The notes beneath the pieces are model-generated. The model was given only the letters and a program-made list of their open reading frames with translations, was not told the origin of the DNA and ran no database searches. Source: Candidatus Nitrosotalea okcheonensis (GTDB lineage Archaea > Thermoproteota > Nitrososphaeria > Nitrososphaerales > Nitrosopumilaceae). Taken from it: a stretch of DNA of 64,000 bases. Numbering within the stretch: the first letter of the stretch is position 1; the number at the start of each line of letters is the position of its first letter. Positions 29,662 to 31,275 of the stretch are shown here, piece after piece. The DNA is taken from positions 1,735,559-1,799,558 of the forward strand of contig NZ_LT841358.1 of assembly GCF_900177045.1 (NCBI RefSeq), in the 5' to 3' direction. The position numbers and the translations under genes were made by a program.

Positions 29662-29695
29662 GCTTATGCTAATTGAGCTTATTTTATAAAGTTTG

Positions 29696-29703
29696 CACTA
29701 TAC
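29696..29703. repeat. Target site duplication, left copy (CACTATAC)
   Basis: The 8 bases directly outside the left inverted repeat are CACTATAC and recur directly outside the right inverted repeat at 30965-30972. Confidence 0.85.
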
Positions 29704-29726
29704 GGTTCTGCTAACTTATCGAGACC
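29704..29726 (+). repeat. Left terminal inverted repeat of the TnpB element
   Basis: 23 bases beginning GGTTCTGCTAAC and ending ATCGAGACC, perfectly complementary to 30942-30964. Confidence 0.9.
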
Positions 29727-29765
29727 TGCCACAAATGATAATAATTCAAAAATGAAAGTAAGATA

Positions 29766-30926
29766 GTGAAAGTAAGAAAGACAATAAAACAGTCATTCAA
29801 TCCCAATACTGAAATCCACTCCATGATGGAAACATTCAAGGACATGGTAAACCATTGCATCAGAATCGGTCTTGAAAACAATGCCTCAACATTAAAAAAC
29901 TCTCTCGATGCTTTCATACAACCAGTTAAAGGAATACAACATACCGTCATATTACAAACTTACTGCAATATCACAGGCAACAGGAGGCTTGCACAGATGA
30001 AGATGTCAATCAAGCGCGGTATAAAGACAAAATCGCCATTCATAACAAAACCATATCTTGTGTCATGCTATGGATTCAAGATAAACTACATGCTCTTGTC
30101 CATACCAACAGGAAACAGACAGGTGATCTTGGTCAAACTAAATGATCATACAATATCAAAACTTGCAGAAGATGGTATAAAGCCAAAATCTTTCACTATT
30201 ACACCAGAGTCACTATGCATCTCAGTTGAAAAAGATGTGGAAGAAATCAAACCAGAATCAGTGATAGGGATAGACAGGAATCTCAGAAATATTACAATAT
30301 CAACTCAAAGTGGAACAGTAATGTACAAGACCAACAAACTACTTTCAATAAAGGAAAATACATCACATGTCATATCATCCTTCAAAAGGTTTGATGTAAG
30401 AGTAAAGAGACATTTCCAGCAGAGATTAGGCAATAGAAGGTCAAGACGGATACAACAATACCTGCACAAAATATCAAAAGACATTGTTCAAAGAGCAGTA
30501 AACACAAAATCAATCCTCATACTAGAAGATCTAAAAGGAATCCGTAAACTATACAGAAAGGGAAATGGTCAGGGGAAAAAGTATCGCAGAAAATTAAATT
30601 CATGGTCGTTCTACGAACTGCAAAGGCAGATTACATACAAAGCAGAATGGGAAGGGATTCCTGTTGGATTCGTAGATCCTAAACGCACAAGCCAACTCTG
30701 TCCAATATGCGGAAAGAGACTCCAAGAGGACAGGTTACAACTTCGTAAATTATTGTGCATTAATTGTAAGAGAACGATGGACAGGGATGTAATTGCATCC
30801 ATGAACATTGCTTACAAGGGGTGGAGTAGGTTTTGCCATCCTAGAGGGCTTTCAGAAGAAGCAGTGAACGGGAATCTGGAAAACTTTCGGCCAGTAATAT
30901 CCTGCAAGTTGATGGAAGCAAGTTGA
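29766..30926 (+). CDS. tnpB: TnpB (IS605 OrfB) RNA-guided nuclease
   Basis: 386 residues with an apparently intact RuvC-like domain: Asp170 (IGIDRN), Glu254 (ILEDLKGI) and Asp341 (DRDVIASMNI), and a zinc finger CPIC...CINC (312-315, 331-334). TnpB proteins use an RNA made from the element's right end to cut DNA at the vacant site. No tnpA is present. Start is GTG 29766; the preceding ATG frame stops after four codons. The stop is immediately followed by a stem-loop that would form the end of the guide RNA scaffold. Confidence 0.93.
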   Translation: MKVRKTIKQSFNPNTEIHSMMETFKDMVNHCIRIGLENNASTLKNSLDAFIQPVKGIQHTVILQTYCNITGNRRLAQMKMSIKRGIKTKSPFITKPYLVSCYGFKINYMLLSIPTGNRQVILVKLNDHTISKLAEDGIKPKSFTITPESLCISVEKDVEEIKPESVIGIDRNLRNITISTQSGTVMYKTNKLLSIKENTSHVISSFKRFDVRVKRHFQQRLGNRRSRRIQQYLHKISKDIVQRAVNTKSILILEDLKGIRKLYRKGNGQGKKYRRKLNSWSFYELQRQITYKAEWEGIPVGFVDPKRTSQLCPICGKRLQEDRLQLRKLLCINCKRTMDRDVIASMNIAYKGWSRFCHPRGLSEEAVNGNLENFRPVISCKLMEAS

Positions 30927-30952
30927 TTATCGAGAACATAGGGTCTCGATAA
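30927..30952 (+). ncRNA. Stem-loop at the tnpB right end, candidate guide-RNA scaffold
   Basis: Directly after the stop codon, TTATCGAGA pairs with TCTCGATAA (9 perfect base pairs) around the loop ACATAGGG. The right arm is part of the terminal inverted repeat. TnpB guide RNAs are transcribed from this part of their elements; the assignment is by position and structure only. Confidence 0.45.
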
Positions 30953-30964
30953 GTTAGCAGAACC
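30942..30964 (-). repeat. Right terminal inverted repeat of the TnpB element
   Basis: Exact reverse complement of 29704-29726. Confidence 0.9.
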
Positions 30965-30972
30965 CACTATAC
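30965..30972. repeat. Target site duplication, right copy (CACTATAC)
   Basis: Matches 29696-29703. On the minus strand it contains TAG (30967-30969), the stop codon of the Rieske gene. Confidence 0.85.
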
Positions 30973-31275
30973 TTCAACAAAGATATTTTCTGATTCTACT
31001 ATTACTTTATACGAATTCAAGTCTTTTATTTTGACAGGAAAGGCAGAAAGCTTACCTGTTTTACAATCGAATTTTGCTCCATGCCAACCACATGTTATTA
31101 TTGATCCCTCCAAACTTCCTTCAGAAAGACTTGCTCCTGCATGTGTACATGTATCGTTGACTGCATGGTATTCTCCATCTATGTTGGCAACAATAACATC
31201 TTTACCGTCTATTGTAACTTTCTGTATTTTGCCGGGAACAAAGTCGCTTACCTTACCAACAATTATTTTTCCCAT
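30967..31275 (-). CDS. Rieske-type [2Fe-2S] ferredoxin
   Basis: 102 residues with both halves of the Rieske cluster site: CTHAGASL (Cys43, His45) and CGWHGAKF (Cys62, His65). Soluble electron carrier of the type that serves oxygenases or other reductases. The stop codon lies within the 8-base duplication made by the TnpB element, so the insertion occurred at the last codon without changing the protein. Confidence 0.95.
   Translation of the reverse strand: MGKIIVGKVSDFVPGKIQKVTIDGKDVIVANIDGEYHAVNDTCTHAGASLSEGSLEGSIITCGWHGAKFDCKTGKLSAFPVKIKDLNSYKVIVESENIFVEV

What the first reader, a model, noticed from the sequence alone, without database searches (positions are those of the whole stretch)
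29696..30972. TnpB element with DDE-type ends: perfect 23-bp repeats and an 8-bp target duplication
The element holds only tnpB, yet its ends are exact 23-base inverted repeats and it is bordered by CACTATAC on both sides. IS200/IS605 elements move as single strands, lack such repeats and create no duplication. The GGTTCTG terminus and 8-base duplication recall IS6-family elements. This suggests TnpB riding as cargo in a non-autonomous DDE transposon, mobilised in trans.
Basis: seen in the sequence. Interest (0 to 1): 0.75.

Follow-up and report, generated by a model that had tools for sequence, protein, structure and literature searches.

The report
RNA-guided nuclease riding a DDE transposon
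In an ammonia-oxidising archaeon, the gene for an RNA-guided DNA-cutting enzyme (TnpB, of the family ancestral to Cas12) travels inside a small IS6-like (DDE) transposon instead of its usual carrier, and its many relatives sit next to a short motif of the kind TnpB needs, which suggests that the enzyme helps keep the transposon in place.

Summary
A 1,261-bp tnpB-only element (29704-30964) has perfect 23-bp inverted ends and CACTATAC on both sides. Eighteen aligned congeners carry the empty site; where CACTATAC itself is unchanged it occurs once, so it is a true 8-bp duplication. The interpretation also holds. Thirty independent elements of the family (this one included) and 9 in other families of the order have GGTTCTG-type ends and 8-bp duplications. 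Transposons with such ends encode an IS6-family transposase; one in a congener (4,910 bp, transposase plus restriction-modification enzyme) has the ends of several tnpB copies. The host has no Y1 TnpA. A 50-bp MITE, what recombination within this element would yield (two mismatches), has its own 8-bp duplication.

New beyond the finding: oriented by tnpB, the bases just before the left duplication are T-A/G (usually TTR) in 31 of 39 insertions, against 7 of 39 on the other side and 3 of 24 flanks of tnpB-less transposons. That is where a TnpB target-adjacent motif must lie. With intact RuvC residues and purifying selection (dN/dS about 0.1-0.3), the best reading is an active nuclease that retains a trans-mobilised DDE element. 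Cleavage, the guide RNA and the exact transposase for this copy are untested.

The parts
29696..29703 (.). left copy of the 8-bp target site duplication, CACTATAC
   Evidence: single copy in empty sites of congeners
29693..29695 (+). TTG directly 5' of the left duplication: putative TnpB target-adjacent motif (TAM, consensus TTR)
   Evidence: T-A/G at this place in 31 of 39 tnpB elements, 7 of 39 on the mirrored right side
29704..29726 (+). left terminal inverted repeat GGTTCTGCTAACTTATCGAGACC
   Evidence: shared end motif GGTTCTG-N5-TTATCGAGACC with other tnpB elements and with the IS6-type transposon L175
29716..29724 (+). TTATCGAGA, first of two direct repeats whose recombination would give the 50-bp MITE found at G000:C1:1220836-1220885
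29766..30926 (+). tnpB, 386 aa, GTG start; RuvC-type D170, E254, D341 and zinc ribbon C312-C315...C331-C334
   Evidence: dN/dS 0.10-0.29 among copies
30850..30964 (+). probable 3' part of the guide-RNA scaffold (overlaps the 3' end of tnpB; includes conserved GATGGAAGCAAGTTG and a strong hairpin made with the right end); limits inferred
   Evidence: no Rfam match, no covariation shown
30927..30935 (+). TTATCGAGA, second of the two direct repeats
30942..30964 (-). right terminal inverted repeat (reads GGTCTCGATAAGTTAGCAGAACC on +)
30965..30972 (.). right copy of CACTATAC; completes the last codons of the neighbouring Rieske-type ferredoxin gene (30967-31275, -)
30965..30984 (+). expected guide segment (duplication plus right flank: CACTATACTTCAACAAAGAT)
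   Evidence: inference from known TnpB right-end RNAs (own knowledge; PMC11043419)

Best explanation
This is a non-autonomous IS6-type (DDE) transposon whose only gene is tnpB. An IS6-like transposase supplied in trans recognises its GGTTCTG ends and inserts it with an 8-bp staggered cut (end sharing and duplications shown; transposition not tested). The right end doubles as the 3' end of the TnpB guide RNA, so the guide reads the duplication plus the right flank (inferred). TnpB then cuts alleles that lack the element where the sequence just before the guide is a TTR-like TAM, and repair from the occupied copy restores or spreads the element (inferred). Insertions that lack the TAM gain nothing from tnpB and are lost more often, which leaves the strong one-sided TTR signal (signal shown; cause inferred).
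For: Ends and 8-bp duplications: this copy, 30 independent elements across Nitrosotalea and its family and 9 in other families of the order. Empty sites with one octamer and, for a second own-genome copy, empty site TTTTGGAC in congeners. Transposons with IS6-like transposase, mostly GGTTCTG-type ends and perfect 8-bp duplications; the L175 transposase is IS6 by NCBIfam NF033587, 129 bits over cut-off 125. Inner end sequences shared between tnpB elements and transposase elements at 15-17 of 18 positions, never reached by 18,000 shuffled ends (maximum 14), including ends of the own-genome transposase element L075. No Y1 TnpA in this genome. MITE that this element would yield by internal recombination (two mismatches), with its own duplication CTTGATAG. 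TAM-like TR upstream of the left duplication 31/39, right 7/39 (Fisher 7.5e-8), tnpB-less transposons 3/24 (2e-7); the 9-element order-level set, not used to find the motif, gives 7/9 (p = 5e-5) with T at -2 in 9/9. Catalytic residues invariant in an alignment of 17; dN/dS 0.10-0.29.
Against: No experiment. This genome holds three IS6-like transposases, and none has ends identical to this copy; this copy matches the L175 end at only 12 of 18 inner positions (p = 0.007). The guide RNA is not seen in Rfam and its structure shows no clear covariation. Eight of 39 insertions lack TR; three of these read AT. Only one tnpB-less transposon (L175) has the same end type as the tnpB copies, and one of its two flanks is TA, so the control is for the transposase group, not for this end type.
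Confidence: 0.82

Rival explanations
1. The element is DDE-mobilised as described, but TnpB is inert cargo and the one-sided TTR is a target preference of the transposase that is read asymmetrically because the two ends differ.
For: The two ends of many copies differ slightly. The transposase lineages of the tnpB-less controls are not identical to the unknown transposase of this copy.
Against: The motif follows the orientation of tnpB across many end types and several genera, while 12 transposase-bearing transposons do not show it above background on either side (3/24). tnpB is under purifying selection with an intact active site.
Confidence: 0.13
2. An ordinary IS200/IS605-type (IS1341-like) tnpB-only element whose inverted ends and duplication are coincidental.
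For: The protein belongs to the TnpB/OrfB family; tnpB-only elements are usually filed under IS200/IS605 as IS1341 (PMC9956272).
Against: Perfect 23-bp ends, 8-bp duplications in 38 further elements, single-octamer empty sites, no TnpA in the genome.
Confidence: 0.01
3. tnpB inserted by its own route into an existing IS6-type MITE, and only the shell is DDE-like; the copies then spread by recombination rather than by transposition.
For: MITEs with the same ends exist (G028:C99).
Against: The local MITE has the structure of a deletion product of the tnpB element, not of its precursor. The tnpB copies have different 8-bp duplications, as transposition requires.
Confidence: 0.04

Closest known systems
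IS6 family (archaeal members and their MITEs; PMC7986276, PMC6807381)
   Same: 8-bp target duplications, GG...CTG-type inverted ends, IS6-family DDE transposase in the partner transposons
   Different: this element encodes no transposase but tnpB; partner transposases are about 370-455 aa with an N-terminal cysteine-rich part, against 211-237 aa for the archaeal IS6 members read in PMC6807381, and the partners carry cargo such as a restriction-modification enzyme
IS200/IS605, IS607 and tnpB-only IS1341 elements
   Same: TnpB of the same family, reading towards a right end that probably forms the guide RNA
   Different: long perfect inverted ends, 8-bp duplication, no Y1 TnpA in the genome; TAM not dictated by the transposase's target choice
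Fanzor1 (and some Fanzor2) elements of eukaryotes and their viruses (PMC3627910, PMC10711439)
   Same: TnpB relative captured by DDE transposons with inverted ends and target duplications, some without a transposase but with the ends of full transposons
   Different: those are eukaryotic or viral, in Mariner, hAT, MuDr and other transposons; here archaeal, IS6, with a small prokaryotic TnpB and a detectable TAM signature
TnpB-driven retention or gene drive of insertion sequences (PMC11870625)
   Same: expected logic: cut the allele without the element next to a TAM, copy the element in by repair
   Different: there the TAM equals TnpA's target site; here the transposase group shows no such preference, so the TAM bias would have to arise after insertion

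Membership tests
IS200/IS605 (incl. IS1341) | Y1 HUH transposase TnpA in the element or genome | tested here: not met
   PF01797 search: 0 matches in this genome, controls ring
IS200/IS605 (incl. IS1341) | no inverted terminal repeats and no target duplication | tested here: not met
   23-bp perfect repeats and 8-bp duplication with empty sites
IS607 | serine recombinase TnpA | not tested
   no serine recombinase in the element; the genome was not searched for one; IS607 leaves no duplication
IS6 family (as a non-autonomous member) | 8-bp target duplication | tested here: met
   this copy and 38 relatives
IS6 family (as a non-autonomous member) | ends shared with an element that encodes an IS6-family transposase | tested here: met
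   L175 and others for the group; for this exact end type the match is partial, 12 of 18 inner positions
IS6 family (as a non-autonomous member) | encodes an IS6 transposase | tested here: not met
   only tnpB is present; hence non-autonomous at most
TnpB RNA-guided nuclease (OMEGA) | RuvC D/E/D and zinc ribbon | tested here: met
   invariant D170, E254, D341, C312, C315, C331, C334 in 17 sequences; NF040570 over cut-off
TnpB RNA-guided nuclease (OMEGA) | TAM next to the site matched by the guide | tested here: met
   statistical signature TTR; no cleavage assay
TnpB RNA-guided nuclease (OMEGA) | guide RNA from the right end | tested here: inconclusive
   conserved 3' segment and hairpin, no Rfam match, no covariation shown
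TnpB RNA-guided nuclease (OMEGA) | guide-directed DNA cleavage | not testable with these tools
   needs biochemistry
Fanzor1 | eukaryotic or viral clade | tested here: not met
   archaeal host; protein scores as prokaryotic guided_TnpB

The most novel reading that the evidence does not exclude
The TAM is chosen at integration: TnpB, bound to its guide RNA or to TAM sites, takes part in directing the IS6-type transposase, so that a DDE transposon has become partly TAM- or RNA-directed, rather than only being filtered afterwards by retention.
Probability: 0.1. Interest if true: 0.95.

Novelty: new variant of a known kind. Interest (0 to 1): 0.78.

Why it matters
How the very common tnpB-only elements move is an open question (PMC9956272 calls it unclear whether IS1341 members are autonomous or decayed copies). 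Here one large archaeal group has an answer: they are DDE, IS6-type elements, presumably mobilised in trans. It also separates two jobs that IS605 joins: there the transposase's target site is the TAM; here the transposase group shows no such preference, yet the TAM is there. That gives a natural test of whether TnpB by itself keeps a transposon in a genome, and a prokaryotic parallel to Fanzor1 in eukaryotic DDE transposons.

Tried and rejected
IS6 transposase loci with 1.5-kb flanks were too short to show ends; wider fetches solved it. RNAalifold on 30 right ends gave a weak structure and Rfam gave nothing. The Y1 TnpA loci of three congeners were checked: one (G033) has a distant TnpB beside it, so ordinary IS605-like elements exist in the genus; their ends were not compared in detail. 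Literature searches for TnpB in prokaryotic DDE or IS6 elements found none; the library lacks most subscription papers, so a prior description cannot be excluded. L104 and L260 were dropped from the statistics (spurious right duplication; same insertion as L259).

Full report
What is there. The window comes from a 1.97-Mb genome (G000); most of the close named matches of its TnpB are Candidatus Nitrosotalea. At 29704-30964 lies a 1,261-bp element with perfect 23-bp inverted ends, bordered by CACTATAC on both sides. Its one gene, 29766-30926 (+), encodes a 386-aa TnpB (NCBIfam guided_TnpB, 138 bits).

The duplication is real. The genes to the right are conserved in the genus. In all 18 congeners aligned the element is absent and the sequence corresponds to the window with the element and one octamer removed; where the octamer is unchanged they read AAAGTTTGCACTATACTTC with one CACTATAC, the rest differ by point changes within it. 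The insertion point is at the last codons of a Rieske-type ferredoxin gene, and the right copy of the duplication completes its 3' end with the stop codon.

It is one of many. In the same genome the TnpB search gave 16 matches. Those with recognisable ends have GGTTCTGTCGGGTTATC-like inverted repeats, and most have their own 8-bp duplications: GAAAACCG, TGAATCAA, CTAGATAA, GATTGTAA, TGCAACAA, TATAATAG. In the family sample 29 of 250 genomes hold relatives at E below 1e-50, in an order sample 57 of 400 at E below 1e-60. In all, 30 independent elements of the family and 9 from other families have GGTTCTG-type ends with 7 or 8 of 8 duplicated bases.

The DDE partner. Transposases with the IS240/IS6 DDE domain (PF13610) occur in 19 of 37 genomes of the genus. 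Where the ends could be found they mostly begin GGTTCTG or close to it, with perfect 8-bp duplications (L080, L081, L085, L086, L088, L089, L090, L091, L140); two (L077, L087) have ACTTCTG ends. The most telling case is G011:C14:3722-8631 (L175): 4,910 bp, identical 25-bp ends GGTTCTGTCGGGTTATCGAGACCTA, duplication TTTATTGA, an IS6-family transposase (NF033587, 129 bits, cut-off 125) and an Eco57I/MmeI-like restriction-modification protein. Its inner end sequence agrees with tnpB elements L008 (this genome) and L111 at 17 of 18 positions; the transposase element at 736 kb of this genome (L075) agrees with tnpB elements of other species (L109, L273) at 17 of 18; L088 and L091 agree with L100 at 15 of 18. 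None of 18,000 shuffled ends did better than 14. The genome has no Y1 TnpA.

The ends alone probably suffice. A 50-bp palindromic MITE at 1,220,836 has its own duplication CTTGATAG. Joining this element at its two TTATCGAGA repeats (29716, 30927) gives that MITE with two mismatches. So it has the structure of a deletion product of an element of this very subtype, at another site with another duplication; whether the deletion came before or after the move cannot be told.

A TAM signature. TnpB guides are read from the right flank. With an 8-bp duplication the guide is the duplication plus what follows, and in the empty site the TAM must lie directly before the left duplication. Oriented by tnpB, that place reads T-A/G in 24 of 30 family-level elements (background 0.15; usually TTR, T at -3 in 21), against 4 of 30 on the mirrored right side and 3 of 24 flanks of 12 transposons without tnpB. 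The order-level set, collected afterwards, gives 7 of 9, with T at -2 in 9 of 9. Combined: 31/39 against 7/39, p = 7.5e-8. For this copy it is TTTG. The signal is tied to the orientation of tnpB, which a symmetrical target preference of a DDE transposase would not give. TTR resembles known TnpB motifs (TTTAA and the weak TTTGA in Sulfolobus, PMC11043419). The right end of the element finishes in CC, not TR, so the occupied site should not be a target; at the left junction only the TAM and 8 bases of the target remain.

Is TnpB functional? The RuvC residues and zinc ribbon are invariant in 17 sequences. dN/dS between copies is 0.10-0.29, also for pairs with dS below 0.1. The 3' part of the gene and the right end contain conserved blocks (GATGGAAGCAAGTTG) and, in this copy, a strong hairpin built with the right repeat, as expected of a guide RNA that overlaps the gene; Rfam has no match and covariation was not shown.

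Mechanism, steps shown and inferred. Shown: DDE-type ends, 8-bp duplications, ends shared with IS6-type transposons, TTR signature, selection on tnpB. Inferred: mobilisation in trans, guide RNA, cutting of empty alleles, loss of insertions without TAM. Not identified: the transposase that moved this copy; candidates are L075 in this genome and a relative of L175 that is not in it now.

Relation to the known. It probably works like a TnpB-retained insertion sequence and moves like IS6; it is not a member of IS200/IS605. Fanzor1 elements in eukaryotic DDE transposons are the nearest precedent (PMC3627910; PMC10711439). I found no description of TnpB in prokaryotic DDE elements in the papers searched, and the IS6 review does not mention TnpB (PMC7986276). 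A survey of thaumarchaeal insertion sequences lists IS200/IS605 as the dominant family in one species (PMC6563490); some of those may be elements of this kind (inference, not tested).

Noticed in passing
G000:C1:1824018 (L012) and G033:C61, G028:C174 (L029, L329): The same site, in the same orientation, is occupied by tnpB elements of clearly different lineages in sister species whose flanks are about 95% identical; other congeners have the empty TTTTGGAC site. Either repeated insertion at one TAM site or replacement of one element by another through recombination.
   Followed up: partly
L175:1223-6132 and L080, L081, L088-L091: IS6-type transposons of 2.3-4.9 kb in Nitrosotalea carry cargo (restriction-modification enzyme in L175, GIY-YIG-like and unknown ORFs in others), unusual for IS6 elements.
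   Followed up: partly
transposases of L075, L080, L175 and relatives: The IS6-like transposases have an N-terminal CxC...CKH (SWIM-like) part and a zinc-ribbon before the DDE domain and are about 370-455 aa, longer than the listed archaeal IS6 transposases.
   Followed up: no
L138:4587-6988 (G000:C1:1611586-1613987): A tnpB element with intact ends and duplication TATAATAG is interrupted by another insertion that encodes a 347-aa transposase-like ORF.
   Followed up: partly
window 29753-29780: The start of tnpB is tandemly repeated (TGAAAGTAAGATAG / TGAAAGTAAGAAAG); the first copy begins with ATG but soon reaches a stop, so the gene appears to start at the second copy with GTG.
   Followed up: no
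L254, L255 (G212), L118 (G034): Three of the eight insertions without TR read AT before the duplication; L254 and L255 are related TnpBs, so this branch may use another TAM.
   Followed up: no
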